This document shows positions 13,455 through 42,755 of a DNA stretch of 64,000 nt, in pieces. Location of the stretch: NCBI GenBank assembly GCA_947561715.1, contig OX387200.1, positions 13,394,501 through 13,458,500 of the forward strand, in the 5' to 3' direction. This DNA comes from Ascidia mentula (taxonomy: Eukaryota > Chordata > Ascidiacea > Phlebobranchia > Ascidiidae). Numbering within the stretch: position 1 is the stretch's first letter; each line of letters starts with the position of its first letter. The translations under genes and the position numbers were made by a program. The notes under the pieces are model-generated. The model ran no database searches and was not told the origin of the DNA. It was given only the letters and a program-made list of their open reading frames with translations.

Positions 13455-13616
13455 GGATAGACTATATGTATGTGTACAAGCAAGTGGCAGAGATCAACAA
13501 CTATATCATATCAGTGCAGCTGGTGATTGTGGCACAGGACTAGCTTTAACCAGCAGGCCGAAAGATTTGCGCTTTGCGTTATCTTTCGGTCAACGTCGAT
13601 CGCGTTGGAAACCCCA

Positions 13617-16948: not shown

Positions 16949-18932
16949 ATGTCATATCGAATAAGGGGATTAGGCATGGACAGGGAGATTGAACAGAAGA
17001 TCGAGCAAAAGTATTCTTTGGATGACGAAAATGAATTAGTGGAGTGGATTGTTTCAGTGCTGATGTATGGACAAGGAAAGCAAGATTTTGAAGAATGCAA
17101 TATTGAAGTTCCACAATGTCCAGGCAAAGAGGTTAGAATAGTAAGAGTGTATGTTTCAGTATGCTGCATGTATGACTAAATACAGATTTTGTTATGCTCT
17201 ATAATAATTAACAAATCTAAATTGATTTGTAGTTTTTAATTTTTATACTTATGATTTTAAATTGTATACATAATGTAGGCTGATCCATTTGGAAAAAAAG
17301 GAAATTGAAATGAAATATAGGGTTTTTAGCTCTTTGTTTTTTCAACAGGCATTTCAGGAATGGCTTAAAGATGGTATGATTTTGTGTGAACTTATGAATG
17401 TTTTAGCACCAGGGAGCTGCAAACCTCAAATTACCACAAATACAACAAATGAAGTACAGTTATTTTGAAAACTAACTTGTTTGTACACCACAGTTTATGG
17501 CAATTGTGTCAAAAGGTCAAGAGGCAGTGTGGTCCAACATCATTTAGTCACGGGCCATAACAAACCATAAGTTTTTCCCGCGAGCCTGTTATATTTGGCC
17601 ATTGGCCCCCGGGCCTGCAGTTGGACCACGCTGTTTTAAGGAATCAATTTTTTACTTAAATATTGTATGACATAGACTGAAAATTGTTTTTCTGGCAGTT
17701 GTACTTAGCCAATGCATGTCCAAAGCTTTTACACATAGTTTTGATATTGACAGTTGAACACACACACATATATATAAATGTTTATGTTTTACTTCTCTTA
17801 CGTATGAGTTTAAACCTAATAATCTCTTTTATATTTCTAAAAATTGCTACAATGCTATTCCAGATTTAATGTGTAAAATATTTTGTCAGGGTATGCGACG
17901 AATCAAGCAAATGGACAATATTTCCATCTTTTTAAATGCAGCTGGAAGCTATGGAGTTAGAAAAATGGATGTTTTTCAAGTAAGGCAAAAAATTTAAAGT
18001 TATTTGTGTGATAAAAAACAAAATAAATGTATGTGTTATAATTTTTTGAAGAAAAAGATTTAAGTAGTCACTAAGAGGCTTGATAATAATTTCTGTTTTG
18101 TTTACGTGTTTGCCTATTACTTATATTTCTTGTCCATGACATGCAATGTTTTTTCACTTTTGTGTAATGAAAGATTATGCATATACACACTAGGGTCCAA
18201 ATAAATTTTGTTAATATAAATGTATTGAATTTTTTTTGTTTAGTAGGTCTGTTTCAGTCTTCTTTAATTTGTTTAAATTTTAAATGTATTTACTTGCAGA
18301 CTGTTGATCTATTTGAATCTCGTGATCTGGCCCAGGTACAAGTTACCCTCTACAAACTTGGTTCTGTTGCACAAAAAAATCAATTTCCAGGTCCTGTGAT
18401 TGGTGTAAAAGTGGCCGAAAAGAATGTTAGAAAGTTTGATCCAAGCCTGACCAAAGAGGGTAGAAACATAATTGGATTACAGGTGCTTTCATGTTGTTGT
18501 GGTTTGTTTCCACACCATTGATTTTCTTAACTGGTTCAAGAAACTCAGCTCCTCTGAATTGTGTGATCAACTTACTGCCTGTATCTAGTTACAATGTGGC
18601 GAAACTCTCATGTATTGTAAATATATGTACATGTATACATTGTAATTATGTTTATCCAACTAGAGCAGCAAATATTTTGTTTTATGTTTTCAAGCAAATA
18701 TATTTGTTGTAATTGTATAACTATCTTATTCTAAAATACTTCTTTTCTTGGTTAGAAACACATATATACTAATTTAGTGACTTTTTTGTTTTTGTTAAAT
18801 TAAACATATGTCTAGTACTTGGGGCTAACTGAATTTTTTTGTTTTAAGATGGGTACAAACCAAGTTGCTTCACAAAAAGGCATGACACCTTATGGTCTTG
18901 GTCGGCAAATGGTAACAAGAGTGAACAAGTAG
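16949..18932 (+). CDS. Transgelin/calponin-like protein A, complete, five exons
   Basis: Exons 16949-17131, 17349-17453, 17890-17979, 18300-18482 and 18849-18932; all introns are phase 0; 214 residues. An N-terminal calponin-homology (CH) domain covers exons 1-4: FQEWLKDGMILCELMNVL, then MDNISIFLNAAGSYGV, then TVDLFESRDLAQVQVTLYKLG. Exon 5 completes one calponin-like (CLIK) repeat, IGLQMGTNQVASQKGMTPYG. A single CH domain plus a single CLIK repeat is the transgelin (SM22) plan: cytosolic, actin filament binding, usually muscle. Exon 1 is 39 nt longer than in genes B-D, adding about 13 residues including FEECNIEVPQC between the first helix and the intron. The gene heads a tandem family with B and C on the same strand. 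Confidence 0.93.
17525..17633. mobile_element. Probable hAT-like MITE in intron 2 of gene A
   Basis: 109 bp ending in inverted repeats CAGTGTGGTCCAAC and CAGCGTGGTCCAAC (13 of 14 identical). The interior is GC-richer than the intron. The flanking 8-mers TCAAGAGG and TTTTAAGG are not a clean duplication, so the insertion is either old or trimmed. Confidence 0.55.
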
Positions 18933-21403: not shown

Positions 21404-22032
21404 TGCGAAGAGCGATGTGCGACTGTAATGACGTACTACTTCAGCTCGGTGAAAAGCATTGAACCAGACTGGCTCAGTCGAGGTTGTCAACGAGTGGAGT
21501 TTTAGTTTGTAGCTTTGGATAGACGTGGAACTGCATGTAAGGAAGTAAAGTTGCGTTGTCAATGGCTTTAGTTAGCTTGTGTGTTTAAAAGGTTAAACAC
21601 GCTCTACCCGTAGCAAAACTGCTTGTTTGAAAAGTATTTTTCTGCCGAAATGTACCTGAACGAATGTAATCTGATCATTCTCTAGATAAAAATCTTGTGC
21701 ATTATTTTCACATTTCTTCATAAAAACTTGTCTTTGCTGTCCGGTGTGTGTCAGAATACCGTGATTCAATCTCTGCATTTGTATTTTGATCAGTTTCCGT
21801 TGTGCGGATGCTGCGTGAGTGTGTGCGTGCGTGCTTTCGCGAGTGTGCACACCCACTGGTCTGAACGAGCGCTTGTAAATTTTCGTGAATGTGCCACTTT
21901 GAAGTGATGTACCGCCCTCATCCTATAACAGCAGCTAAACTTTACAAAGCTGCGATTCGCCATTGAGTTGTGTTTTTCTTATAACAGAGTTTAGGATTGA
22001 TATATTTTGAATCCCCAAAAATACTTGATAAA

Positions 22033-23032
22033 ATGGCAAACCGACCAAAAGGGTATGGTCTATCCGGGGAGATTGCAAGCAAGATCGACTCTAAATACAG
22101 TGATGAGGACGAAAAGGAAATTTGTCAATGGATCAACGCTATCACTGGTCAAACCTGTCCGCAATCAGGAGCAAAAGTGAGCGCAGCTTAACGAGCATAA
22201 TTATATGTGAACTATACCCACTTATACGCCGTATATATAAGAGATTTACTTTCAGTAACTGCCATTAGCACAACGGTGGACAAATTACGCTGATATGAAA
22301 AATGATGTTGTTTATTTATTGTCTTTTAGGGTGTGCAAGAATGGCTGAAGGACGGTACAGTTTTATGTATGTTGATAAATGCGATTGCTGAAAATCCTAT
22401 CAAGAAATACAACACTTCGGTAAATGTTTGTATACAATGTGATCATTGTTTGGCACGTTTGTAACGGCCGGTACTTTCTATTTGCTACAGAAAATGGCCT
22501 TTAAGCAAATGGAAAATATTTCCATGTTTTTGACCGCTTGTGAGAACTACGGAGTACCGAAAACAGATCTGTTCCAGGTGCGTGTGTTTATCAGTTTGTA
22601 GAAGGTTTACTAATATGTGTAAGTTTTACAACCAACTACCATTTATTACAGACGGTATCATTATACGAAGGCACAAATATGCCACAAGTATTGGCTACAC
22701 TTCGAGCTTTAAGTTCAGTTTCCATTAAAAAAGGTTATGGTGGTCCAGTGTGTGGGGTGAAAATCGCGACAGCTAACAAACGTGAACAAGATGAGCAAAA
22801 ACTACGCGAAGGTCGAAATGCTATTGGACTTCAAGTGAGTATTTATTGGTCGTAGTTAATGTAGGACGTTTAACAATATGTTTTGGATGGTTATACTGGC
22901 TTAAGTTAACGTCCTATTTACAGGAACCTTATGTTTTATTTGCATAAACAGATGGGCACCAACCAGGTTGATTCACAAAAGGGCATGACACCTTATGGGC
23001 TGGGACGGCAACTTACACCACAAAATAAATAA
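22033..23032 (+). CDS. Transgelin/calponin-like protein B, complete, five exons
   Basis: Exons 22033-22176, 22330-22419, 22491-22577, 22652-22834 and 22952-23032; all introns phase 0; 194 residues. It starts MANRPKGYGLSGEIASKID, the transgelin N-terminus. The CH domain continues through VQEWLKDGTVLCMLINAI, MENISMFLTACENYGV and TVSLYEGTNMPQVLATLRAL. The C-terminal CLIK repeat is IGLQMGTNQVDSQKGMTPYG. Exon 2 is five codons shorter, and exon 3 one codon shorter, than in A, C and D, so B is a separate paralogue lineage. An in-frame ATG exists 36 nt upstream (21997), but the family N-terminus supports 22033. AATAAA lies at 23313-23318. Three CArG boxes upstream suggest SRF control. B also seeded the fused pseudogenes at 28581 and 40006. 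Confidence 0.95.
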
Positions 23033-27639: not shown

Positions 27640-27697
27640 GCCACCGGCACTAACCGACACCAACCGGCAAGAGTTGCAAGATACAGACATCTCCAGC

Positions 27698-28105
27698 TTA
27701 AGGAGAGTTTGAAGAATTAGGAGTAAATGACCAACAACTGCCTGCGACAAAAGAAGATGTAGGGTATCCGATAGAAGAGAGCACCCGATTGCTTACGGTG
27801 GACGATCTGTCACAAAGTGTGAGGGAAACCACTCCACCATCTGGAGAGAACTGCTCGCTGCTGTGTACGACCTTCTCTTTTAGCTGCATTACTTCTTTAC
27901 AAAGCCCCGCAATTTGCTCTACTAAAGAGGTTAGGTCGAACTTTGACGTTTTAGTAGGTGTCACAGCAAAGATGTTTTGCCTCTGTGGATCCTCACATGA
28001 TCCAACCGACTCAACTAACCGCACCCAAGAGCCGTCACATAAAACAAATTCGCGGACGCTAGAGGCGATAAGGAGATAAAAATATGTAACAAATGCACGA
28101 AACAC
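27698..28105 (-). CDS. Duplicated antisense open frame, unrecognised protein
   Basis: 135-codon open frame with the run FVLCDGSWVRLVESVGSCED and a short heptad-like helix LTSLVEQIAGLCKEVMQLKEKV. A copy lies at 39228-39548, where the reading frame ends earlier. Its persistence in both block copies, plus a related fragment near 26940-27010, suggests part of a dispersed element rather than a host gene. I recognise no domain and see no promoter or splice sites. It may be non-coding. Confidence 0.25.
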   Translation of the reverse strand: MFRAFVTYFYLLIASSVREFVLCDGSWVRLVESVGSCEDPQRQNIFAVTPTKTSKFDLTSLVEQIAGLCKEVMQLKEKVVHSSEQFSPDGGVVSLTLCDRSSTVSNRVLSSIGYPTSSFVAGSCWSFTPNSSNSP

Positions 28106-28580
28106 AGGAATATTTTATTATCAGATCTTCGCGAAATAACACACGTGACAGCCTTTTCACGTACTTCGTCATTTGTCAAGCAAATCATCACCAAGTCTAA
28201 CAGACTTCACCTTCACAAATGTGGTTGTTAATCAATACAAGGATCAGTTTTACAGCATTGGACAAAACAACTGTTGACAGTCGTACTGTTGCCATTTACA
28301 AAACAGAAATTTGACACGTCGTTACTGACATGAGCCACGTCCGTTCTACGACGGAAATTTCAAGCGGGAATTACTAAAAGACTAATTGATGGCATTGTTT
28401 GTATTTTATTTTGTTTTGTGTGGTTGTTTGTTTTGGGTGTTTTGGGTTGTTTTTTGTTTTTAAAAAAACGAGCGCTTGTGAATTTTCGTGAATATGCCAC
28501 TTTGAAGTAATGTTCCGACCTCATGCTGCGGAACAGCAGCTGAACTTTACAAAGCTGTAATTCGCCATTGAGTTATGTTA

Positions 28581-28692
28581 AAAGAGTATGGTTTATCAAG
28601 GGAGATTGCAAGCATGGCTGAAGGACGGTACAGTTTTATGTATGTTGATAAATGTGATTGCTGAAAATCCTATCAAGAAATACCACACTACG
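28581..28692 (+). pseudogene. Transgelin B pseudogene: exon 1 fused to exon 2 (copy 1)
   Basis: AAAGAGTATGGTTTATCAAG plus GGAGATTGCAAGC comes from B exon 1. It runs straight into ATGGCTGAAGGACGGTACAG of B exon 2, with the rest of exon 1, all of intron 1 and the start of exon 2 missing. The join lies in a GCAAG/ATGG similarity and breaks the frame (the exon 1 frame reaches TGA shortly after). B-like 5' flank precedes it, and B intron 2 sequence (GTAAATG...) follows before the similarity ends. Exons 3-5 are absent. Confidence 0.85.
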
Positions 28693-29152
28693 GTAAATGT
28701 TGGTATACAATGTGATTATTATTTGTATTTGCATTTGAAACGGCCGTCTAGGAACATCTTGTCGGAGCACTTTACATTTTTGTGAGTTGAGAAAAAACCA
28801 ACTGAGGGAAACAGAGGGTTATTTGCCGAGCCCAACAGTGTGGTGGATATTTTAACATCACGAAGTTGTTCATTTTTTGACAAAATATGCGTAATAATTA
28901 TACGTTGGTATTCAAACTTTCGTATTTTGCATACAGAACGTTGGCGTTTATATGTTTTATCTTTCAGGCTACCAATGTCAATAGGTAATATCCGACAAGA
29001 TCAGTCAACCATGTTAAAAAAGACATTGGCAGTCTTATTTATTCTATGACACATTGTGTTACCTCTTTTGCCACGCAGGGTTACCCCTAAAAGTTATAAT
29101 AAATATTTTATAACTTGGCAGGAGCTAGAAGGGCATATTTACTAGCATTTTA

Positions 29153-32100
29153 TTATGGCGCAAATTTCTTATCTACGCATTTGCACTCTGAACGTTAACG
29201 GCCTAGGCCAGGCAACCAAGAGAAGGGCCCTATTTCGGAACCTTTCCTCTTTGAACTTTTTTGCCTCCAAGAAACTCACTCTACCCCCCATACCGAATCC
29301 CTGTGGAAGTCCGAATGGACTTCCGGCCCAACCCTCTTAAACTCGGCACCTCTAAAAGGCTCTGCCTACGGGGGTGTCGCAGTTCTTCTAAACTCATCCA
29401 GCCTCCGAATTCTCAATTCAACTTCTGACTCTGACGGTCGCATTATTGCGGCCGATATATCAACCCTGACCCACACCTTTCACTTAGTTAATATATACGC
29501 ACCCTCCGGCACAAAAAATTACATATTCAATAACAAATTCTTCGACTCTCTCTACCCCTACATCTCTTCTACCCACCCAATTGTTTTTACTGGAGATTTT
29601 AATTGCGTAACCGACCCTACCTTAGACAGATACCCATCACTACCCAATCGACAACCCAGCTATAACCTCATAAAATTACTAACCACTTTTAATTTACAGG
29701 ATTCTTTTCGGCTTCTACACCCAAATCTCCGTCAATTTTCCCGCCGCGCCCCAAACTCTCAGTCTAGAATAGATCGAATTTACCTCTTCCTTTCATTATC
29801 TCCCAATAATCATCTTTTTACTCCTTGCCCCTTTTCGGACCATGACTCAGTTTCGGTCTCTCTTAACCTTATCTCTTCTCCACCCAGAGGCCGTGGCACA
29901 TGGAAAAATAATACTAAAACTCTTAACGACCCTCTTTTCCGTCTTGACTTTTACCGCTTCTACCCTCTTTGGCAAACTCTCGCTCCTTTACACCCTAACC
30001 CAATGGACTTTTGGCTAACACTTAAATTTAAATTTCAATCCCTGACAAAATCACATTCGAAACGTTTGGCTAAACAATCCCGAGAAGAAACTTACACCCT
30101 ACAGCAACAACTCGACACCGCCCTCCAAATTCTTAACGACAATCCCTCTTCTGAAAACTTTCGCTCCTTTCAATCTATTAAAAAATCCCTAAATTCTCTC
30201 TACCTTTCTAAATCCCGTGACTCTATTCTAAAATCTCTTTCCTCCGACTCCCATTTTAAAAACATTACCGATAAATTACTCTATTCCGAATTACTACCCT
30301 CACGCATTCACAATCCCATTTTCGAACTACAAGACGACCACGGCCTCCCTCTCTCTACCCCCAAGGAACTTCTTTCTCACACTCGGCAATTCTTCGAAAC
30401 TTTATATTCTAATCAAAACCTTCCAATACCTGACCCCGCTAATTTATTCGCTAAAATTCCCCTTAAATTAATTCCGGACCAACACATTGAAACCTTATCA
30501 ATCCCCATCACGCAACATGAAATTAGAAAAACTCTTTCCCTCTTTCCCTCCGGCAAAACCCCCGGCCCCGGCGGTCTCAGCAGCGAGTTTTACTCGCTGT
30601 ACTGGAACCTCATCGGGGCCGACCTCACCCAAGCTCTTAACTTCTTATATTTTAATTCCTACACCCCTTCAGATTACAACCTTGGACATCTTACCCTTAT
30701 CTTCAAAAAAAATGACCCACTCTTCTAAATAATTACCGGCCAATCTCTCTTTTAAATACGGACCTTAAAATTCTTCACAAGCTTCTAAATCTCGGACTCA
30801 AACCCTTCATACCCGAAATTCTTTCTTCAAATCAATTCGCTACCCCCGGCTCTTCCACCACCGACGCAACTTCTCTCCTACGCGATCTCCACCATCACGC
30901 TTCCTCCATCAATTCGGACACTTACTTCATTTCCCTCGATTTTCAAAAAGCCTTCGATTCTGTTTCATTTTCTTGGCTACTCCTTCAGTTAACTCTTAAA
31001 CGCTTTCCCACTTGCTTTACTAATTACCTTTCTGCACTTCACTCTAGCGTCAACTCCCGGGCCTTCATAAACGGCTTTGCCACAACGGATTTTCCGATCA
31101 GGAGGGGTATCAGACAAGGAGATCCCCTTAGTCTGAACCTTTTCCTGATTGCCCTAGATCCGCTCCTCGTTGCCCTTCAAAATAACTCTTCCATCGACTT
31201 AACCCCAGTGCCATGCCGCGAACACACAAGGCAATCGCTTACGCCGATGACGTCACCCTAGTGGTGGTGCATCGGCACTCCCTCACCAAAGCCCTCGGCC
31301 TCATTGATCATTTTGGTAAATTTTCTGGATTAAAACTAAACCCCACCAAAACCGAAGCGATTGCCATCCTTCGACCTCCCATTGATGACCCGACCTTGTG
31401 TAATATAAAGTGGAACCCTAAATCGATAACTCCGTTAAACACCCCAATAGGCGCACCATCAGACATTACCGCGACATGGCACAAAACAATTACCTCTTTG
31501 CAATCCCGCGCCAATTCTATCAGCAACCCGTTTCTTACCTTTGATTCTAAATGCATCCTCTCAAAAACTTTACTTTTGCCCCAATTTCATACCTTGGTAA
31601 AACTTACCCTTTATCTCCCCAGCAACGAGAACGGATCGACGGCATTGTGGTAAAGTTCGTCGTCGGCCCAAACAACCCAACCTTGCCAATTAACATCCGT
31701 GACCATGGCGGTTACGGCGCGGCAAACATTCCTTTCTACGCTGACCTATCACTTCTCTCTTCTATAAAGCAATATTACAATCACCGCCTTTTGGAATCCC
31801 CAACCTCTCCACAACTTTCCTTTATAGAATATAACATCGGACTTCCCCTTAGCAAACTTTTTAACCTTCGTTCTAGAAACTTTCTTCCACACGCTTCAAC
31901 ACCTTCTCCGCACTATCTTCATATTCTTAATCTTCTCAAATCTTTCAAACTCACCGAAACTGAGCTCATGACCAAAAAACTCAAACCCCTCTATCTCCGG
32001 GTTATCGACGAACCAACACACCACATCCCTTTAACGACTGGCCCCAAATTCACCATCCCATCTTTCCAAATTATCTCAAAACTTTTAATTTTCGGCTAAC

Positions 32101-32751
32101 ACATAAAATTCTTCCGTTAAATTGTCAAAAATCATACCTCCCCTTGGACCAACAACCCCACTGCTACCTGTACAATTTCCTCTTTGAAACTTTTACTCAC
32201 CTATTCTACAACTGTCCTTCCATTCAACCTCTGCTCACCTTAATTCGCAACGTCTTTCGAACTTTATCTGACCTAAACACCTGTCCTTTCGACACCCCTT
32301 TACACATCACATTTCCACAACTTCACAACACAACACCTTACACGAAAACATTAGGAGCACTGTTAAACACCGCACTAACAAACACTATCTGGAAAACACG
32401 AAACAGAATTAAACACGACACACGCCCCATCAACGACATACCCCGCCACTTAGTAACATCCTGCAAATCCTCCTTTCGCTTAAGACTCACTGTCCAGCGA
32501 AATAGGGACAACCCCTTTCTCGAGGAAATCCTGGCCGATGTCGTAAACACGCTTAACATCACGCATACCGACACCCCATAAAAGCGCCCACTCGCAGAAC
32601 ATAAATTTTTAAACTTGGCCACGCGATTTACCGTTTTTTTTCCTCCGTACATTACCGCCCACTCGTGGACTAGAAAATATCCAGAAAATCATGTTAAATC
32701 AACCACTAGGGGTCGATAGCTCCCCATGCGATTATTTTTATGTGTTTTGCG

Positions 32752-32760
<9 letters not shown>
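29153..32760 (+). mobile_element. LINE-1-like/Tx1-type retrotransposon, 5'-truncated and decayed, plus strand
   Basis: Starts almost exactly at an ORF2 start (MAQISYLRICTLNVNGLG), so ORF1 is missing. Apurinic endonuclease motifs follow across shifted frames: QETHS near 29270, VNIYAPS near 29490, GDFNCV near 29600, RIDRIYL near 29770 and SDHDSV near 29840. The reverse transcriptase is in pieces: the frame at 30003-30728 carries SGKTPGPGGLSSEFYSLYW, then DFQKAFDS near 30950, RGIRQGDPLS near 31110 and AYADDVTLVV near 31240. The C-terminal parts lie at 31551-32099 and 32144-32581. At least five frameshifts or stops break it. The sense strand is strikingly rich in C and T and poor in G. Confidence 0.9.
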
Positions 32761-32797
<37 letters not shown>

Positions 32798-32879
32798 CTA
32801 AGCAAGAAGACAAAAAACAATGGTTAAACACAATGGCAAGAAATCAGCAAAAGAGAGTCAAGTTATTTGGGTATATGCT

Positions 32880-33413
32880 TCAAGCAGCGTAGGACCACTT
32901 TCTTCTGTAATAATTCGTTTCGCTACAATATTTTTCACTGGCGATGTTTAGTTCTATAGATCTTGTTTTTTGCAACATGTTAACAAATTCTGTTATTGTT
33001 GGTTTCCTCTTACCGTATTTGCATCGATAAATCACAAATCTGGCACAAAGAAGAGCGCAATTTAAAAAGCATTCAAAAATATTGTTATTTTCATGTCTAC
33101 CAAACAGTAAATGCGCACGAGAAAAATACAAGGGTACACGGAGTTTAGCGCTTAGCCAACTGCATACATTTTCCCAGTAATGTGCTGCGATAGGACAATT
33201 TACAAATAAATGTAAAACCGTTTCCTCGGCATTTTCGCAAAAGACACATGAACCTGTTTCTATAAACTTCAGATCTTTTAACTTTTTATTGGTCACAATG
33301 GCCCTGAGATTTAGCTTAATTTGAAAACTAAGGATTCCCATACAGCTTGTGCTTTGGGTTGAATTATATTGGCGGTTTGAAGTTACGAATACAAAGCCTT
33401 TGTGCTCTCGCAA
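32880..33413 (-). pseudogene. LINE ORF2 C-terminal part, frame-shifted from the main ORF
   Basis: About 177 codons continuing ORF2 after a one-base shift. It contains the zf-RVT-type zinc motif CVFCENAEETVLHLFVNC followed by HYWENVCSWL, normal for the C-terminus of plant and animal L1/Tx1-type ORF2 proteins. The shift falls in or next to the 6-T run at 33426-33431 (an A run in the sense strand), a typical slippage site. Confidence 0.8.
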
Positions 33414-36400
33414 TGTGTCAAGATATTTTTTAAAACGTCTGTCAGGTTTTTATGTGTAGGCACTGGTCCATTGTCCCACTCCTCGGGCATGCATGCTATA
33501 AGCTTGAGAAACTTAGTGAAATCTGTTGTACTTGGGTCAAGACTAAATTTTGTAGTAAGTGCATCATATTTCAAATATTCCCCATTGTGGTCTAGTAGGT
33601 CGTTGTGGGCCATTACTCCCGCGTCTATAAATGTTTCGAAATAGAAGGGTTTACTGCGTTTTTTTAATGCTTTGTTGAGCCAGAGAGGTCTGTTGCATGC
33701 GTGGTCGGGGTTTTTGCTCAGGATTGATTTCGCAATGTTTATGTTACAACGGAGGGTTCTCAATGGGATGATGCTCCTAAAGATTGTACTTGATGGGCCG
33801 ACCGTCGCGTTTAAAAGTGTCTCCAATCTGTTTGGGTGTAAGAATGGAGTTTGAAGACCCGTTATATTTTTTGTTTCCTCGCAAAATAATTCCCTGAGCG
33901 CTTTAAATTTTAGAGCCAACATATAGTTCTCAATATGTATCATGCCCGCCCCACCGTTATCCAAACTTTTACACAGGTTCACTCTTTTAATTCGTTCCCA
34001 AGATGAGCCCCATATAAATTTAAATAAGGCTCGGTCGATTTTACAAATGCACTTTTTTGGGATGATCACTGGTAGGACGCACAGTTTATATGTCAATAGA
34101 GGTATAATGAGACTCTTAGCTATTGTTATTTTGCCGAGAAGGGTTAATCCTCTGGACGCCCAAAGGTTCATTACTATGTTCGCTTTTTTTAGTGCCGGAG
34201 AAAAGTTTAGTTCGATAAGTTCCTCATCTTTGTATTTTGTGAGTGGTATTATAACCCCAAGGTACTTAATAGATTCCGAGGGCCATTGAAGACCATCCTT
34301 TTGAAATGGTTTGTGATGGTTTGAGCGATTTGGACCTATGAAAAAGGCACAGGACTTTTCCATATTTACTTTGCAACCTGTCATTTCGCCGAACTCCTCT
34401 AAAATTTGAAAGATTTTGGTGAAATCCGCATCAGAACCTTTAGTAAAAACGAGTGTATCATCCGCAAATAAGGATGTTTTGTATTCTTTGTCGTTTAGTC
34501 GTATGCCTTCAAAATCACCCTGTCTAAGCGCAGTTGCTAGGCATTCGATGCAGAGCACGAATAACGTTGGGGAGAGTGGGTCTCCCTGTCTGACGCCACG
34601 TTCTATGTCAAAAGATTCTGAGAGAAAGTTGCTATTGGTGACTCTCGCAGAGGCATTTTGGTAAAAGCCTTTAATGAGATTGACAAATCTGACTCCGAAC
34701 CCGAACGCAGAGAGAGTTGCGAAGATAAATTCCCACCTTAAAGTGTCAAAGGCTTTATAAATATCTAAAGACAGTACTGCCCCAGGAACGCGGTAATGGT
34801 CCGTACTGTCAATCATGTCGAACAGCAACCGGATATTTGTTCCTATATAGCGGTGTGGAAGAAAGCCGTTTTGGTCGTTGGATACGATATCGTCGATAAC
34901 ACCGCGTATTCTTGTGTTAATCACTTTGGCGGCGATCTTATAGTCAACGTTTAGCAGGGTTATTGGGCGATAATTTTGGGCCTGTAAAAGGTCTTTCCCT
35001 GGTTTGGGAATTAGGGTGATGAGTCCTTCAGATTGGCTCGCGGACATTTTACCGGTTTCAACCGTAAACTTCCATGCATTTAGGTAGACCAGTTTGATAT
35101 CATCCCAAAATATCTTGTAAAATTCAACCGGGAAGCCATCCAAGCCTGGCGATTTGTTTTTTTGCATGGTTTTAATCACATTTAAAAATTCCGCTTCCGT
35201 TGTCTCCTCATTCAGTTTTTCCGCTTGTTCGCAAGTAATTTTTGGCAGCGCGAGCTTTTCTAGGTTACTTGTCAGCAGGGTGTTTGGAGTCGAACATGGA
35301 GGTTTCTCATACAGGTGGGTATAAAAGCCAGCTAGGTTATTCAGTATTAATTTATGGTCAGTGGATATAGTCCCGTTGATCAATAATCTAGAGATGGTTT
35401 TTTTTGCGACATGTCGTTTTTCTAAGTTCAGGAAGTATTTTGTGTTTTTTTCTCCTTCTTCTGCCCAACGTACCCTACTCCGAATAATAGCACTTTTTGT
35501 TTGTCGCTCTAAAAGGGTGTCCAAGTTTCCTTTAGCTTTTGAAAGTGCTTCGACTCGCTTCTGTTTATCGTCCCCTTGTAAGTTGGTTATCTCAGTTTCC
35601 AGTGACGTAATTTGCTTCTCTAAGGCGTTATGTTTGACGGTTAATTTGCGCTTTAATACGGCCGCAAATCGGATCGACTCACCCCGAATTACTGCTTTTA
35701 ATGCGTCCCATCTGGTGTGGGGATTTGTGTCTGTTTCTGGGTTTTCAAGAATGAAGTTGTTGATGACTTTCCTGATTGTTGCCCTGTATTTTTCATCTTT
35801 TAAATGCATAGTATTTAGCTTCCAGTAGCCCCTTCCTTTCGGAGATGGGTTTATTGCAACATCTAAGGTTAGCACACTGTGATCTGACATAATTCCTGGG
35901 ACAATGTCAACGTTTACTACGTCGCTAATTAAGCTGCGATCGACAAGAAAAAAGTCAATTCGTGATAGTGACAGTGGCGATTTCTGAGTGCGGGAGAATT
36001 TTTTTGTTGAGGGAAATTTAAATCGAAAAATGTCGGTAAGATTCGAGTGTTGCATGTAGTTTTGTAAGGCCTCCTTTGCTCGTTTGTTGGGGTGATGGGC
36101 GTTTCCGGTTTTATCAAGTCCTGGGTCAAATGCTAGGTTAAAATCCCCCCCCATTATAACTGGCGCACCAGAAAAGTTTGACAGTTCTGCGAATAGGTTG
36201 TGGAAATATTCTGGGGAGTCGTTGTTGGGTGCGTAAACATTAGCTAGGGTTATTGTTTTGGAGTTAATTTCTATTTCAGCCAAAATGAATCGGCCATCGC
36301 GATCGGATACGGTGTTTTTTAACGTATAAGAGAGGCCTTTGTTGAACAGGATTCCTACTCCCCTGCTGCTCCTATTGCCATGTGACCAAATAGCTTCCCC

Positions 36401-36559
36401 GCCCCATTCTAGTTGCCATAATTTCGCGTTGTCAGGACTGGAATGGGTCTCTTGCAAAAAAGCAATGTGACACTTGCGACGCAAAAAGTTAAACACCGAT
36501 TTTCGTTTAATAGTCTTGTTTAGGCCCCGAACATTAAAGGAAACAATATGGGACGCCAT
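33383..36559 (-). CDS. LINE ORF2: endonuclease plus reverse transcriptase
   Basis: About 1,058 codons from MASHIVSFNVRGLN. The frame is open a further 15 codons upstream, overlapping ORF1, but the MASH start 12 nt after the ORF1 stop fits best. Endonuclease motifs: FLQETHSS, NVYAPNND, MGGDFNLAFD, RIDFFLVD, SDHSVL. Reverse transcriptase motifs: SPGLDGFPVEFYK, NYRPITLLNVDYKI, LDIYKAFDTLRW, RGVRQGDPLSP, LFADDTLVF and YLGVIIP. The catalytic Asp of block A and the FADD box are present, so both enzyme domains look functional. It nicks target DNA and copies its own RNA at the break. The frame ends early at 33383 because of the shift described for 32880-33413. Confidence 0.93.
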   Translation of the reverse strand: MASHIVSFNVRGLNKTIKRKSVFNFLRRKCHIAFLQETHSSPDNAKLWQLEWGGEAIWSHGNRSSRGVGILFNKGLSYTLKNTVSDRDGRFILAEIEINSKTITLANVYAPNNDSPEYFHNLFAELSNFSGAPVIMGGDFNLAFDPGLDKTGNAHHPNKRAKEALQNYMQHSNLTDIFRFKFPSTKKFSRTQKSPLSLSRIDFFLVDRSLISDVVNVDIVPGIMSDHSVLTLDVAINPSPKGRGYWKLNTMHLKDEKYRATIRKVINNFILENPETDTNPHTRWDALKAVIRGESIRFAAVLKRKLTVKHNALEKQITSLETEITNLQGDDKQKRVEALSKAKGNLDTLLERQTKSAIIRSRVRWAEEGEKNTKYFLNLEKRHVAKKTISRLLINGTISTDHKLILNNLAGFYTHLYEKPPCSTPNTLLTSNLEKLALPKITCEQAEKLNEETTEAEFLNVIKTMQKNKSPGLDGFPVEFYKIFWDDIKLVYLNAWKFTVETGKMSASQSEGLITLIPKPGKDLLQAQNYRPITLLNVDYKIAAKVINTRIRGVIDDIVSNDQNGFLPHRYIGTNIRLLFDMIDSTDHYRVPGAVLSLDIYKAFDTLRWEFIFATLSAFGFGVRFVNLIKGFYQNASARVTNSNFLSESFDIERGVRQGDPLSPTLFVLCIECLATALRQGDFEGIRLNDKEYKTSLFADDTLVFTKGSDADFTKIFQILEEFGEMTGCKVNMEKSCAFFIGPNRSNHHKPFQKDGLQWPSESIKYLGVIIPLTKYKDEELIELNFSPALKKANIVMNLWASRGLTLLGKITIAKSLIIPLLTYKLCVLPVIIPKKCICKIDRALFKFIWGSSWERIKRVNLCKSLDNGGAGMIHIENYMLALKFKALRELFCEETKNITGLQTPFLHPNRLETLLNATVGPSSTIFRSIIPLRTLRCNINIAKSILSKNPDHACNRPLWLNKALKKRSKPFYFETFIDAGVMAHNDLLDHNGEYLKYDALTTKFSLDPSTTDFTKFLKLIACMPEEWDNGPVPTHKNLTDVLKNILTHCESTKALYS

Positions 36560-36570
36560 TATGACATTAT

Positions 36571-37962
36571 TTAATATTTTTTCAGTCCAATCTCGATGTC
36601 CCACTCAAATTCCATGCCGCACGGACAACGAAAGGGTTCGCCAGGGTTTATGAGCTGCGCAAATACTTTGCCACAGTCACAGTTAATTATTTTATGTTTA
36701 CACACAGCATTACAACAATCAATGCTCATCGTTGACTTAGGGACGCGATTCATCGCGTTACATACACATATGATAGAGTACCTTTCGCATTGGATACATT
36801 CGAAGGTGCCCTCCTCCTTTCGGAATTCTGGTTGAAAGTCCTGACAACATGGCATAAGCCGCATTGTGCTTCGACATGTCGGACATTTGCAGACTTTACT
36901 CCCCACTTCCACAAGAAACAGTTCATCTCTGCAACATTGTACCGCCACAGTCCATTCTTTCGAGCATCCCCAGCAGCGTGTTGATTTAGATTTGGAGGTA
37001 ACCAAGATTTCCTCTTTACATTCTGGACAGTTCAAGGAAATTACGCTTTCGCAAAGACTAATTGACTTGCTTTTAGGCAGGTCTTCAGGGCTTCTTGTTG
37101 GTCGTTTTCTGGTGGTCCGCTTATCGATGGGCGTGCTTGCGTGAGGTGATTCCGTGGCTTGGAACTCATCGGTCAAGTTGTAATCAGCTACAGTGTTTGG
37201 GACTTTGGCACTATCGCTCTTTGGGCTCTTATCAGTTGTAGTCGCAGCTTTCTTATCAGGTTGCTCCAGACTTGCACCTGGTGCTCCGGGATTTTTGTTA
37301 CCTTGCTTTTGCTTCAATTCTGATGTGTTTGCACGTTTTGATGGCTGAACATTTGCAAGCTCTGGGAAATCCAATTTACGTTTTGGGCAAACGAATTGTT
37401 TGTGACCCTTTTCCCCGCAGTATTTACAGGTTGCTACCTGACCATGGTAGGTAACATAAAATTCGCAGTCCAAAATTCTAATATAGCTTGGGATTGGGTT
37501 ATCTTCTAGGTCGGATACATTCATTGTGGCGATACGCATGCCTGAAAGCAAACCTTCTCTTCCTTTACGATGTATCATCTTGGAAACATTCCCATATTTT
37601 TTTGTCAACTCTTCTGCGATTGCCTGGTTTGGAAAGGGTATTGGAACCCATCCTACAGCGACATTAACTTTGTCGCTTTCATAAAGTCGTAGGTGTTTTA
37701 TCCCTTCTAGGGTACTAAGCTTTGCATATAGGTCGAGCACATGTTCTCTAGATGTACAGGTGATGTCAAAAGAGTTTCCCCTCATTTCAGCTATTCCAGT
37801 AAGCTTTTTGATTGAGTACTGTAGATTATTAAGAGTTTCTAACACATTTTCTCTTTTCAAAATGCCTTCCGCCTTCAAACTTAGACAGTTTGGCCTTCTC
37901 CATTCGGCCGACTTTTTATATGCTACTTGCGCGTAACTTGGCTTTTCTGCCATTTCTCGCAC
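36571..37962 (-). CDS. LINE ORF1: zinc-knuckle RNA-binding protein with a cysteine-rich C-terminus
   Basis: 463 codons (MREMAEKPSYAQ; a second Met at codon 4). Residues about 30-190 form an RRM-like ORF1 core ending GMRIATMNVSDLED...SYIRILDCEFYV. The CCHC knuckle CKYCGEKGHKQFVC follows. Then comes a basic, Ser/Lys/Pro-rich linker (residues about 215-305), and a C-terminal region of about 150 residues carrying many cysteines: CPEC, CWGC, CC, CKCPTC, CC, CIQC, CVC, CC, CKHKIINCDC and CPC. This could form several zinc ribbons. The core plus knuckle is typical of Tx1-clade ORF1, which coats the element RNA. The extra cysteine-rich tail I do not recognise. The stop lies 12 nt before the ORF2 start. 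Confidence 0.9.
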   Translation of the reverse strand: MREMAEKPSYAQVAYKKSAEWRRPNCLSLKAEGILKRENVLETLNNLQYSIKKLTGIAEMRGNSFDITCTSREHVLDLYAKLSTLEGIKHLRLYESDKVNVAVGWVPIPFPNQAIAEELTKKYGNVSKMIHRKGREGLLSGMRIATMNVSDLEDNPIPSYIRILDCEFYVTYHGQVATCKYCGEKGHKQFVCPKRKLDFPELANVQPSKRANTSELKQKQGNKNPGAPGASLEQPDKKAATTTDKSPKSDSAKVPNTVADYNLTDEFQATESPHASTPIDKRTTRKRPTRSPEDLPKSKSISLCESVISLNCPECKEEILVTSKSKSTRCWGCSKEWTVAVQCCRDELFLVEVGSKVCKCPTCRSTMRLMPCCQDFQPEFRKEEGTFECIQCERYSIICVCNAMNRVPKSTMSIDCCNAVCKHKIINCDCGKVFAQLINPGEPFRCPCGMEFEWDIEIGLKKY

Positions 37963-38289
37963 GTCCGCACACTACGCGTGCTACAGGTAGAATGGTTTTT
38001 CTTCTTGTGTTTTCGCGTGTGCCTGCTAGGTATTTGCGCCAACTAGTGCGATACCCGCGAGGGACTGGCTGCCGCCAGGAGTTGCTGTGTATCGTCAAGC
38101 CCTTTCCCTTATTCGTTGCGTTCTCTTCTTACTTTGTTCAATTTTATGCGTGGCGTTATCCGTTCACGTGGTGTGATATTCGTGGGGATTTGATGTACCC
38201 CGAATAAAATAGTTAACGGGCAAGGAAACTAATGATTGACCAATGAGAACACTTCTGTTATGACTTTCAACAAAAAATTGTGTTTGCAG

Positions 38290-38370
38290 ATGGGAACTAA
38301 TCAGGTTGATTCACAGGAGGGCATGACACCGTATGGTTTGGGTCGACAGCTAACAAACAAACCTGAATAA
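38290..38370 (+). pseudogene. Orphan exon 5 of a transgelin C-like gene
   Basis: An 81-nt exon with intact acceptor (TGTGTTTGCAG) and stop. It encodes MGTNQVDSQEGMTPYGLGRQ and the NKPE end, and is preceded by the end of intron 4 from 38222. Its VDSQEG matches gene D, not C (VASQKG), so it shares a more recent ancestor with D. Exons 1-4 are gone; the LINE 5' end lies 9 bp upstream of the surviving intron. Confidence 0.9.
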
Positions 38371-39227
38371 CTGAAAGTTGCTCTTCTGGTGTAATCGCAT
38401 TTGCAAATCGCGTTGTTATCATTAAATGGGAACTTATTTTTCTCAAACCAAAGTATTTTTCTCAAACCAAAGTTTTTTTCCAAACTTGATCCACATATAA
38501 GCCTATATAACAAATAGATCTGTGCGAATAATAACGCTACGATGTTTTGTAGTATTTCAACTCAAATTTATTAACAAAAATAACAGGCGTTGGCCCTGTT
38601 CACAGCTTATCATTAAAATTCGCACAGATTTCTGTTTTACACATACCTATATGTGGATAAAGTGTGAAAAAACCCGGTGACCCGGTGTAAAAGTATCTTC
38701 CCACCGTCACTATCATTGGATAAAGCGTTCCGCATGATGAGACAGCTTTTTGTAAAAACAAAAACTTTTTTAAAACTTGTATCTGTTAATAATTTTGGGC
38801 TGATTTTTACGCTACGTCACTGGATCTTGCCGTTAGACTTGCGAACCGTTGGGGGGTCTTCGGCAACTTCTTGATACACGTGTTATGTGATTGCTAAATC
38901 ACAATTTTCGAAAATTATTCACGAATTTCGCAATAGGCCAAAAACATGCTTAATTCCTGCAGAATATTGTAATCTTTTCATATGGCAAACAAAAACACAT
39001 GCCTGTGTGACAGTCTGGACTTAAAAAATATTAATGGGGTCTGCGACTACTCTTCATCATCAAAAGGGGGACCAACCGGCACCAACCGGCACCAACCGGC
39101 AACAGTTGCGGGACAGCAGAGACATCTACAGCTTAAGGAGAGTTTGAAGAATTAGGAGTAAATGACCAACAACTGCCTGCGACAGAAGAAGATGTAGGGT
39201 ATCTGATAGAAGAGAGCACCTGATTGC

Positions 39228-39548
39228 TTACGGTGGACGATCTGTCACAAAGTGTGAGGGAAACCATTCCACCATCTGGAGAGAACTGCTAGCTGCTGTG
39301 TATACGACCTTCTCTTTTAGCTGCATTACTTCTTTACAAAGCCCCGCAATTTGCTCTACTAAAGAGCTTAGGTCTAACTTTGACGTTTTGGTAGGTGTCA
39401 CAGCAAAGATGTTTTGCCTCTGTGGATCCTCACATGATCCAACCGACTCAGCTAACCGCACCCAAGTGCCGTCACATAAAACATATTCGCGGACGCTAGA
39501 GGCGATAAGGAGATGACGATAAAAATATGTAACAAATGCACGAAACAC
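39228..39548 (-). CDS. Duplicated antisense open frame, second copy
   Basis: 106 codons, nearly the same as 27698-28105 (VLCDGTWVRLAESVGSCED, LSSLVEQIAGLCKEVMQLKEKV). The reading frame diverges after KEKVVY, ending at 39228, so at least one copy is not maintained. Unrecognised and possibly a non-coding repeat. Confidence 0.22.
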   Translation of the reverse strand: MFRAFVTYFYRHLLIASSVREYVLCDGTWVRLAESVGSCEDPQRQNIFAVTPTKTSKLDLSSLVEQIAGLCKEVMQLKEKVVYTAASSSLQMVEWFPSHFVTDRPP

Positions 39549-40005
39549 AGGAATATTCTATTATCAGATCTTCGCGAAATAACACGCGTGACAGCCTTTT
39601 CACGTACTTCGTCATTTGTCAAGCAAATCATCACCAATCTTAACAGACTTCACCGTCGCAAAAGGATCAGTTTTACAGCATTGGACAAAACAACTGTTGA
39701 CAGTCATACTGTTGCCATTTACAAAACAGAAATTTGTCACGTCGTTACTGACATGAGTCACGTTCGTTCTACGACGGAAATTTCTAGCGGGAATTACTAA
39801 AAGACTAATTGATGGCATTGTTTGTATTTTGTTTTGTTTTGTGTGGTTGTTTGTTTTGGGTGTTTTGAGTTGTTATTTTGTTTTTGAAAAAAACGAGCGC
39901 TTGTGAATTTTCGTGAATATGCCGCTTTGAAGTAATGTTCCGATCTCATGCTGCGGAACAGCAGCTAAACTTTACAAAGCTGTATTTCGCCATTGAGTTA
40001 TGATA

Positions 40006-40117
40006 AAAGAGTATGGTTTATCAAGGGAGATTGCAAGCATGGCTGAAGGTCGGTACAGTTTTATGTATGTTGATAAATGCGATTGCTGAAAATCCTATCA
40101 AGAAATACCACACTACG
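40006..40117 (+). pseudogene. Transgelin B pseudogene: exon 1 fused to exon 2 (copy 2)
   Basis: Same fusion point as at 28581-28692 (GCAAGC joined to ATGGCTGAAGG), with a few substitutions. The identical breakpoint shows that the B copy was broken before the block was duplicated. B-like flank (39893-40000) precedes it. Confidence 0.85.
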
Positions 40118-40581
40118 GTAAATGTTTGTGTACCATGTAATTATTATTTGTATTTGCATTTGTAACGGCCGTCTAGGAACATCTTGTCGGAGCACTTTAC
40201 ATTTTTGTGAGTTGAGAAAAAACCAGCCGAGAGAAACAGAGGGTTATTTGCCGAGCCCAACAGTGTGGTGGATATTTTAACATCAAGAAGTTGTTCATTA
40301 TTTGACAAAATATGCGTAATAATTATACGTTGGTATTCAAACTTTCGTTTTTTGCTGCCTAGATCACTGACGTTTGTATGTTTTATCTTACAGGCTACGA
40401 ATTTCAATAGATAATATCCGACATGATCAGGCAACCATGTTGAAAAGGACATTGGCAGTCTTATTTATTCTATGACACATTGTGTTACCTCTTTTACCCC
40501 TAAAAGTTATAATAAATATTTTATAACTTGGCAGGAGCCAGGGCATATTTATTAGCATTTACTGCAGACATAGAAAACAAA

Positions 40582-41497
40582 ATGGCAAATCGACCAACAG
40601 AATTTGGAATGTCAGGAGAGATTTCCTCAAAAATGATTGCAAAATATTCCGAAGAGGACGAATTGGAAGTCGTGGCTTGGATTGAGAGAATTACCAGTGA
40701 GAGCCCAAGCGGACGGGGTAGAGAGGTGTAACATTTTTTTTTAGTTTCTTTAACTTAAGTATCATGACGTTTTTTGTTGTTTAGGCGTTTCACGCGTGGT
40801 TAAAAGATGGTCTGGTTCTTTGCGAGTTAATGAACAAACTGAGTCCAGGTAGCTGCAAACCAAACAACGTTTCAGGCATCAGATTTGAGGTAGACGTACT
40901 AGTTTTTTTTCAAGACAATACCATTGAAATTTACACTTGTGCTTTTTTCCCATAATTTCATGTTGCTCTTATAAGTACTTTCACATGAAAAGTTATTGAC
41001 TGTGTTTTTCAGGCAATGAAAAGAAGCAAAGAAATGGAAAACATCGCCATGTTTTTGTCAGCGGCTCGCAAATTTGGCGTTGAGCCAAATAATTTATTTC
41101 AGGTTTGAGTTGAAATTTTATTGATAAACCTTCCATACAAAACTTTCTTTCAACATTTTGCAGACCACTGATCTTTACGAGTCTCAGAACTTGGACCAAG
41201 TTCAAGTCACTTTATTCGAACTCAGCGCAGCCGCACGAAAAAAAGGCGTAAACCTTCCACAAATAGGAGTAAAGATAGCCGAAACAAATGTGCGTGAATT
41301 TGATGAACAGAAAACCAGAGAAGACCGTAATGTCATTGGCTTACAGGTAAGGAAACTAATGATTGACCAATGAGAACACTTCTGTTATGATTTTCAACAA
41401 AAAATTGTGTTTGCAGATGGGAACTAATCAGGTTGATTCACAGGAGGGCATGACACCGTATGGTATGGGTCGACAGCTAACAAACAAACCTGAATAA
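40582..41497 (+). CDS. Transgelin/calponin-like protein D, complete, recent copy of C
   Basis: Exons 40582-40725, 40785-40889, 41013-41102, 41164-41346 and 41417-41497, with the same sizes and phases as gene C; 200 residues. Frame and splice sites are intact, so it may be expressed. Several normally constant positions differ from C: KGYGLS is TEFGMS, SSKIDAKYS is SSKMIAKYS, EGRNVIGLQ is EDRNVIGLQ, and QKGMTPYG in the CLIK repeat is QEGMTPYG. These suggest weakened constraint or altered actin binding. An upstream in-frame ATG exists at 40528, but the MANRP start matches the paralogues. AATAAA lies at 41689-41694. Confidence 0.9.
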
Positions 41498-42755
41498 CTG
41501 AAAGTTGCTCTTTTGGTGTAATCGCATTTGGAGTTGTTATCATTAAATGAAAACTTATTTTATCAAACCAAATTCGCAAATGCAGCATATATAGTTCACC
41601 TTGACTTCAACACTTGTCACCAGTGTAAAGTTTAAATGTAAAAAAGAACCAAACTATACTCTGTGTATCTTAATGTGCTTATATATGTAATAAACACACA
41701 GAACATTTGTACGCATGTCACTAAGCAATTCTTACTGGACGGAAAGTCATAATCGAAAAAATCCAAACTGTTTAAAAACATGCAGAAAACCCGTCCTGTG
41801 CAGTTTTAAGGCTAAATTGTTTGATCATTTGCTAAAAAAAGGTCGGGCAGAAAAATGGTGTTGTTTATTCTGTTGCATCGTAACCCACACGACAAGTTGT
41901 AACTGTTGATCACATGCGGTATTTCCACCCTAACTTCAGTCCAGACCCCACGAAAGGGGGGTAAAACCATTGTTTGCTTTGAATATGTAAAATTTCACCA
42001 GAAAGAATAAAAAATGTGTTGTAGTGTCAGGGCATCTATACCAACCATACAAAGATCGAATTTAAGACTGATGGCGCCAGTACATCGATACCAATAGGTG
42101 GAAGTGGGAAATACTCACAATTTCTTCGCCGCTGATTGGCAGCATTGGTCAACCGCCCCACCCACATACCAAGAAGAAAACCTGATCTTTTACACCAGCT
42201 AATAAAAGAAGATACTTTTTTTTCCAAACTTGATCCACATATCAGCCTATGTAACATATAAATCTGTGCGAATAATAACGCTACGATTTTGTGTAGTATT
42301 TCAACTTAAATTTATAAACAGATTTCTGTTTTACACATACCTTCATGTGGATAAAGTTTGAAAAAAACCGGTGACCCGGTGTAAAAGTATCTTCCCACTG
42401 TCACTATCATTGGATAAAGCGTTCCGCATGATGAGACAGCATTTTGTAAAAACAAAAACTTTTCTAAAACTTGTATCTGTTAATAGTTTTGGGCTGATTT
42501 TTACGCTACGTCACTGGATCTTGCCGTTAGACTTGCGAACCGTTGGGGGGTTTTCGGCAACTTCTTGATACACGTGTTATGTGATTGCTAAATCACGATT
42601 TTCGAAAATTATTCACGAATTTCGCAATAGGCCAAAAACATGCCTAATTACTGCAGAATATTGTAATCTTTTCATGTGGCAAACAAAAACACATGCCTGT
42701 GTGACAGTCTGGACTTAAAAAATATTAATAGGGTCTGCGACTACTCTTACGTCAT

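What the first reader, a model, noticed from the sequence alone, without database searches (positions are those of the whole stretch)
29150..38222. Two tail-to-tail LINEs replace exons 1-4 of a third transgelin C copy
The gene C 5' flank stops at about 29150 (AGCATTT), where a plus-strand LINE begins. The minus-strand LINE ends at about 38213, and transgelin intron 4 resumes at 38222. About 790 bp present in copy 2 (40560-41350) is missing. So LINE insertion was accompanied by deletion, or one LINE inserted and a later event removed exons. The two elements meet 3' end to 3' end at 32760.
Basis: seen in the sequence. Interest (0 to 1): 0.7.

Follow-up and report, generated by a model that had tools for sequence, protein, structure and literature searches.

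The report
Jumping gene that lands beside CTCF sites
What looked like two jumping genes meeting tail to tail is one inside another, and the inner one belongs to a family that tends to insert at a fixed distance from DNA motifs of the kind read by the genome-folding protein CTCF.

Summary
The junctions are real: transgelin copy C stops at 29150 and resumes at about 38213-38216, lacking the 782 bp that carry exons 1-4. The tail-to-tail reading is wrong. In 8 of 8 other plus-LINE 3' ends read, window 32690-32756 runs on into 37995-38213 (six of the eight lie in one repeated region). So the minus LINE (32763-37994) is nested in the 3' UTR of the plus LINE, with a 12-bp target-site duplication. The outer LINE begins 4 nt before its ORF2 start codon and stands in place of the exons.

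The inner LINE led to something larger. Of 35 distinct insertion sites of its family, 20 have a CTCF-consensus match (12 or more of 15) upstream on the element's strand; shuffles gave 0.94 on average, 5 at most. At 10 of 14 sites with a readable duplication the best match starts 43-47 nt before the first nick (one scores only 10). A consensus-free alignment finds the same block. The exact motif occurs 74 times genome-wide, its reverse 2, and the genome, probably a tunicate's, holds CTCF. Best reading: an L1-type LINE targeting CTCF-bound DNA, as TRE5-A targets tRNA genes. Tethering is inferred.

The parts
27643..29150 (+). Transgelin copy C 5' flank and 5' UTR remnant
   Evidence: 92.4% identical to 39075-40560
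29151..32762 (+). Outer LINE, first part: 5'-truncated 4 nt before the ORF2 ATG (29155); ORF2 lies in pieces in different frames
   Evidence: 8 of 8 other copies read go on upstream of the same ATG; EEP and RT domains; ORF pieces
32751..32762 (+). Target-site duplication, left copy, GTTTTTCTTCTT
   Evidence: present once in the empty plus-LINE copy L060, once in near-identical form in the others
32763..32797 (-). Poly(A) tail of the inner LINE (T run on +); its inner edge cannot be told from the duplication to within 2 bases
   Evidence: sequence
32798..37994 (-). Inner LINE, L1 type, complete at its 5' end
   Evidence: same 5' end in other copies; 99% copies over 4.7 kb elsewhere; ORF2 hits LINE-1 ORF2p at 3.7e-113
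36571..37953 (-). Inner LINE ORF1, 460 aa, a CCHC knuckle (by reading) and a Cys-rich C-terminal third
   Evidence: no Pfam family
33383..36604 (-). Inner LINE ORF2 (endonuclease and RT); its frame breaks near 33327, where about 70 nt held by other copies are missing
   Evidence: the C-terminal zf-RVT piece lies in another frame
37995..38006 (+). Target-site duplication, right copy
37995..38215 (+). Outer LINE, last part (end of 3' UTR); right edge 38212-38215
   Evidence: follows window 32690-32756 directly in other copies
38035..38049 (-). CTCF-like motif GCACTAGTTGGCGCA in the outer LINE 3' UTR; its start lies 43 nt from the first nick of the inner LINE (41 by the program's edge)
   Evidence: same motif in eight empty copies
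38216..38370 (+). Transgelin copy C intron 4 and exon 5 (38290 on)
40561..41342 (+). Copy B segment (exons 1-4) absent from copy C

Best explanation
Transgelin copy C was hit by a 5'-truncated LINE that now stands in place of exons 1-4. Later an L1-type LINE of another family inserted, in antisense, into the 3' UTR of that first LINE. The second family does not land at random: its machinery is brought to DNA carrying a CTCF motif, most likely by touching bound CTCF or something at CTCF such as cohesin, and its endonuclease makes the first nick about 43 nt downstream of the motif start (about 28 nt past the 15-nt core), on the 3' side, with the element's sense strand parallel to the motif. The 3' UTR of the outer LINE carries such a motif, so the first LINE brought the landing pad for the second. 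Shown: nesting, duplication, motif, spacing and orientation, CTCF gene present. Inferred: that CTCF itself occupies the motif and is the tether (about 0.65).
For: Nesting. Motif: 20 of 35 distinct sites score 12/15 or more at -95..-30 on the element strand (shuffles: mean 0.94, max 5 of 1000); 15 of 35 at -65..-50 (mean 0.23, max 3). Of the 18 sites first read after the motif had been noticed, 10 reach 12, 8 of them at the expected distance. No two of the 35 flanks are alike at E 0.001. Consensus-free: 14 sites aligned on the left edge of the duplication give a best 15-column block at -45, 5.80 bits, null max 5.14 in 5000. Spacing: 10 of 14 sites at 43-47 nt; with the program's own edges, 8 of 10 at 41-44. 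Controls on the element strand: 3' flanks 0 of 12, farther upstream 1 of 28. Eight plus-LINE copies without the inner LINE already hold the motif. Genome-wide 74 exact motifs against 2 reversed; the 20 of these 74 fetched share little beyond the motif. CTCF orthologue, fingers 2-8; a 69-aa exon piece has CTCF as best solved-structure match, 6.9e-51.
Against: 15 of 35 sites lack a score of 12; L095, L058, L084, L054, L057, L083 and L085 show nothing convincing (8-10). L087 and L094 reach 12 only at other distances, and L045 sits at 35. Opposite-strand matches of 12 or more: 5 of 28 upstream, 2 of 12 in 3' flanks, above what the window background would give. The motif was first seen by eye in flanks that make up 17 of the 35. 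The left edges of four duplications were read by hand and the others trimmed by 1-2 nt. No binding data exist here. The CTCF consensus used for scoring was recalled.
Confidence: 0.78

Rival explanations
1. The inner LINE's own protein (ORF1 Cys-rich domain or ORF2) reads the motif directly, as site-specific LINEs read their targets; CTCF is not involved and the likeness is convergence or competition for the same sites.
For: ORF1 has a CCHC knuckle and 23 Cys in its last third. Fixed spacing is also what a bound endonuclease would give.
Against: The motif follows the CTCF consensus through its degenerate positions, is enriched genome-wide far beyond the LINE's own sites (74 against 2), and the genome has CTCF.
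Confidence: 0.25
2. The LINE simply uses open, nucleosome-free DNA, and CTCF sites are open.
For: CTCF sites are accessible in animals (recalled). Some opposite-strand matches exist (5 of 28; 2 of 12).
Against: Mostly one side, one orientation, and a spacing within a few nucleotides; 3' flanks 0 of 12 on the element strand.
Confidence: 0.06
3. The outer LINE's loss of 782 bp is a later deletion, not part of the insertion: it first inserted at the exon 4/intron 4 border and a deletion then removed its 5' part with exons 1-4.
For: No duplication flanks the outer LINE; a short T run is shared at the 5' junction.
Against: Needs two events where one suffices; truncated LINEs with target deletions are known (recalled).
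Confidence: 0.3
4. Tail-to-tail pair of LINEs, or twin priming.
For: Orientation of the two ORF sets.
Against: 37995-38213 belongs to the plus LINE; the two elements hit different sets of genomic copies.
Confidence: 0.01

Closest known systems
TRE5-A of Dictyostelium (tRNA-gene-targeting LINE)
   Same: APE-type LINE; integrates in a narrow window (80.2% within 47+/-3 bp) from a DNA-bound host complex; ORF1p contacts TFIIIB proteins (passages of PMC5391098; passages of PMC5911963)
   Different: Target is Pol III genes through TFIIIC/TFIIIB, and TRE5 inserts upstream in opposite transcriptional orientation; here the mark is a CTCF-type motif and the sense strand is parallel to it
Mammalian LINE-1
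   Same: ORF2 aligns to LINE-1 ORF2p over about 870 aa; poly(A) tail and target-site duplications
   Different: L1 nicks at short T-rich sites (recalled); this family's nick sites share no clear sequence (by eye) but a distance from a motif
Target-specific LINEs (R1, R2, Tx1, Utopia, Keno)
   Same: Insertion position fixed with respect to a sequence
   Different: Those go into repeated genes such as rRNA and snRNA (start of the abstract of PMC4640811 in the listing, else recalled); here beside a degenerate motif in DNA that differs from site to site
LINE insertions with target deletion
   Same: 5' truncation, short shared bases at the 5' junction, missing target DNA (class recalled)
   Different: 782 bp including four exons; timing not proven

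Membership tests
L1-group non-LTR retrotransposon (inner LINE) | APE-type endonuclease plus RT in ORF2, closest to LINE-1 | tested here: met
   Pfam Exo_endo_phos and RVT_1; among solved structures LINE-1 ORF2p 3.7e-113 against R2 1.9e-27
L1-group non-LTR retrotransposon (inner LINE) | target-primed insertion: poly(A) and target-site duplication | tested here: met
   12 bp here; a program found one at 11 of 20 sites tried, of which L028 (no poly(A)) was not accepted; 4 more read by hand
Target-specific LINE | fixed insertion point relative to a sequence | tested here: met
   10 of 14 sites at 43-47 nt. Not met at L045, L087, L092 (41, score 10) and L094
Target-specific LINE | target is a multicopy gene or satellite | tested here: not met
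   no two of 35 distinct 5' flanks alike at E 0.001
Host-factor-tethered LINE (TRE5-A-like) | element protein binds the host factor on the target | not testable with these tools
   only motif and spacing are seen
CTCF motif | host encodes CTCF | tested here: met
   L120 (C73:9337500-9342500), fingers 2-8, CTCF best match 6.9e-51
CTCF motif | CTCF occupies the sites | not testable with these tools
   no binding data
Tail-to-tail LINE pair / twin priming | 3' ends adjacent, or both halves of one element | tested here: not met

The most novel reading that the evidence does not exclude
A lineage of L1-type LINEs in a tunicate integrates by docking on CTCF, or on cohesin halted at it, nicking the DNA a fixed distance (about 28 nt) past the 3' end of the motif. 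That would make the machinery of chromosome loops a retrotransposon integration tether, and the insertions a fossil record of germline CTCF occupancy and orientation.
Probability: 0.6. Interest if true: 0.88.

Novelty: new variant of a known kind. Interest (0 to 1): 0.78.

Why it matters
Tethered integration is documented for LTR elements and retroviruses (recalled) and for Dictyostelium LINEs. In three paper searches (I saw the titles and abstract starts of 19 of 21, 15 of 114 and 15 of 92 papers) I saw no LINE targeted to CTCF sites. If right, how an L1-type element can be steered becomes testable with an element whose target is one host protein, and such insertions may seed or disturb loop anchors. 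It also explains why this LINE sits inside another LINE: the outer one carries the motif in its 3' UTR.

Tried and rejected
Tail-to-tail and twin priming: rejected. The motif as part of the LINE's own 5' end: rejected, because the duplication lies between motif and element, the flanks are unlike, and empty copies hold the motif. The motif as one dispersed repeat: 20 of 74 exact sites fetched; they share with each other no more than 27 bp, motif included; L107 resembles the L047/L081 target by eye; the other 54 were not fetched for this. A first conclusion that the genome lacks CTCF was wrong: those searches scored 150 of 934 and 150 of 1151 candidates and were filled with ordinary zinc fingers; a shorter query (150 of 1576 scored) gave a 61% hit, and the gene. 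Same targeting in the plus-LINE family: one copy with both ends read (L074/L078) has poly(A), a duplication and, by eye, no motif; one copy is too few. No paper naming the assembly by size found (0 papers). A fold of ORF1 was not run.

Rows dropped before counts: L081 (same target as L047; scores 14), L088 (9) and L091 (10), whose 5' ends look rearranged in duplicated copies (scores); duplicates L043, L050, L051, L055 and L061 are counted once, through L042, L049, L054 and L056. With these out n = 35; one search used 28 of them (19 of 28 reach 12), and L052, L054, L057, L059, L083, L085, L093 were added. In one search, 14 3' flanks were tried and 12 counted. The duplication edges used are those less 1-2 nt at the outer end, where the program allowed a mismatch or ran into poly(A); L012, L045, L089 and L094 were read by hand.
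Full report
OBSERVATION. Self-comparison of the window shows a row of transgelin copies. Copy C 5' flank 27643-29150 matches 39075-40560 (92.4%), and the match resumes at 38216-38452 against 41343-41572 (93.2%). The three-way alignment shows copy C ending in ...AGCATTT just before the start codon and returning at the exon 4/intron 4 border. The missing 782 bp hold exons 1-4 of copy B; the copy B protein has a CH domain and a calponin repeat. Copy C keeps exon 5 (38290 on). One flank query finds no second, LINE-free allele in the 195,842,439-base assembly.

WHAT LIES BETWEEN. Genome searches contradict that. The last 222 nt (37995-38216) hit places that adjoin 3' ends of plus-LINE copies. In the eight such places read (L060, L062-L068; six of them in one repeated region of C70), window 32690-32756 runs on without a break into 37995-38213. 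Upstream of 32690 the copies differ; L060 and L063 hold about 370 nt more there. The 12 bases GTTTTTCTTCTT occur once in L060 and twice here (32751-32762, 37995-38006), flanking an element whose sense strand is minus, with a long poly(A) (32763-32797). So the minus LINE is nested in the 3' UTR of the plus LINE with an ordinary target-site duplication. Its 5' end at 37994 is, within a few bases, the end shared by other full-length copies.

OUTER LINE. In 8 of 8 other copies read, sequence of the element goes on upstream of the ORF2 start codon: a spacer, and before it Cys-rich coding-like sequence that I read as ORF1 (L074 is itself cut off within it). Here the element begins 4 nt before that codon, with a few T shared at the junction and no duplication. 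It lacks a long poly(A), as do the eight other 3' ends. Its ORF2 lies in pieces in different frames. It is a 5'-truncated insertion joined to loss of 782 bp of target. One event is simplest; a later deletion is not excluded.

INNER LINE. ORF2 (EEP endonuclease and RT) aligns to LINE-1 ORF2p at 3.7e-113, far above R2 (1.9e-27). ORF1 has 460 aa, a CCHC knuckle by reading, and 23 Cys in the last third, with no Pfam family. The closest copies are 99% identical over about 4.7 kb, so the insertion looks recent. The window copy lacks about 70 nt near 33327 that lie between the two matched parts in other copies, which shifts the ORF2 frame, and about 38 nt before the poly(A) that many other copies hold.

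AN UNEXPECTED REGULARITY. Reading the 5' flanks of full-length copies, I saw a recurring CTCF-like word some 55 nt upstream, on the element's strand. Scored against CCRSYAGRKGGCRSY (recalled vertebrate CTCF consensus), window background reaches 12 of 15 at 0.04% of positions. The 5' ends of truncated copies were then located, fetched or cut from loci already held, and examined. Over all 35 distinct sites, 20 reach 12 or more at -95..-30, against 0.94 on average and 5 at most in 1000 dinucleotide shuffles; in the narrow range -65..-50, 15 of 35 against 0.23 and 3. Of the 18 sites first read after the motif had been noticed, which are the fairest test, 10 reach 12; 8 of these sit at the expected distance (L082, L086, L089, L090, L093, L012, L016, L031), L087 and L094 do not. 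No two of the 35 flanks are alike at E 0.001. Where the duplication could be read (14 sites), 10 have their best match starting 43-47 nt before the left edge of the duplication, that is, the first nick; six at 43, one of which (L046) scores only 10. These edges are trimmed by 1-2 nt or read by hand; with the program's own edges, 8 of 10 sites fall at 41-44. Without any motif in mind, aligning the 14 sites on that edge gives the strongest 15-column block at -45 with 5.80 bits; 5000 random shifts gave at most 5.14. Controls: on the element strand 3' flanks 0 of 12 and -160..-96 1 of 28. On the opposite strand there are more matches than expected: 5 of 28 upstream and 2 of 12 downstream.

AT THE WINDOW SITE the motif is GCACTAGTTGGCGCA, 38035-38049 on the minus strand, inside the outer LINE 3' UTR, 43 nt from the nick (41 by the program's edge). 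It is present in eight plus-LINE copies without the inner LINE, so it preceded the insertion. By eye, L044 and L045 are also insertions into sequence of this LINE type.

HOST FACTOR. CCRCTAGNKGGCGCY occurs 74 times exactly in the genome (28 forward, 46 reverse), against 2 for the pattern read backwards. The 20 of these fetched share with one another no more than 27 bp, motif included; L107 resembles the L047/L081 target. A bacterial-type cellulose synthase fragment (C71:8044065-8044532; found; TIGR03030 2.5e-21, far below that family's full-length cut-off; bacterial cellulose synthase structures) points to a tunicate, since tunicates are the animals with such a gene (recalled). Nine large contigs (192.2 of 195.8 Mb, lengths) resemble the nine chromosomes of Clavelina lepadiformis (start of the abstract of PMC10884593 in the listing), but its 210.1 Mb differs and I do not claim the species. 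CTCF was missed at first because only 150 candidates were scored, then found: L120, minus strand, intron-split fingers with AFVTSGELTRH, YASVEISKLRRH, GRKSDLNVHMRKQH and CRYCDELFHDRWSLMQHQ; a 69-aa exon piece has human CTCF as best solved-structure match at 6.9e-51 (other zinc-finger proteins follow, the first at 9.8e-45). Oikopleura CTCF has been profiled by ChIP (passages of PMC5240408).

MECHANISM. A mostly one-sided, one-orientation, fixed-distance nick with no clear shared sequence at the nick itself is what tethering predicts. The nearest precedent is TRE5-A: 80.2% of tagged integrations within 47+/-3 bp upstream of tRNA genes, TFIIIC binding needed, ORF1p in contact with TFIIIB proteins (passages of PMC5391098 and PMC5911963). 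The 3' side of a CTCF motif is where the CTCF N-terminus and halted cohesin lie (recalled), so either could be the dock. Direct reading by ORF1p remains possible. CTCF is said to be absent outside bilaterians (passages of PMC12221973), so whether related LINEs there lack the preference would be a test.

WHAT DOES NOT FIT. 15 of 35 sites lack a match of 12; several are truncated or from divergent copies, but seven show nothing convincing. L045 sits at 35 nt, L092 at 41 with a score of 10, and L087 and L094 match only at other distances. The opposite-strand excess is unexplained. Binding was not measured.

Noticed in passing
13615-16424: Tandem array of a 59-bp unit, about 48 copies, 93% matches, near the transgelin cluster.
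   Followed up: no
G000:C70:16.9-17.9 Mb (L062, L064-L068): Many same-strand copies of the outer LINE with shared flanks, some spaced about 14.24 kb (17617726, 17631968, 17646212), suggesting a long tandem unit that contains the LINE.
   Followed up: partly
18836-18908, 21864-22452, 22949-23024: Further short transgelin-like pieces, so the cluster had more than three copies or fragments.
   Followed up: no
near 33327 (minus LINE): About 70 nt held by other copies are missing, with 3 shared bases at the break; the ORF2 frame is shifted.
   Followed up: partly
L119 (C71:8043700-8044900): Bacterial-type cellulose synthase fragment in an animal genome, as known from tunicates.
   Followed up: partly
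L047, L081, L107: A repeated stretch carrying a CTCF-like motif, hit by the inner LINE in two places and LINE-free in the part read of a third.
   Followed up: no
38035-38049 and 32703-32717: The outer LINE 3' UTR holds two CTCF-like words on opposite strands (GCACTAGTTGGCGCA on minus, CCACTAGGGGTCGAT on plus), so LINEs of this type may spread CTCF-like sites.
   Followed up: partly
flanks of the inner LINE family: CTCF-like matches on the opposite strand are also more frequent than expected (5 of 28 upstream; 2 of 12 downstream).
   Followed up: no
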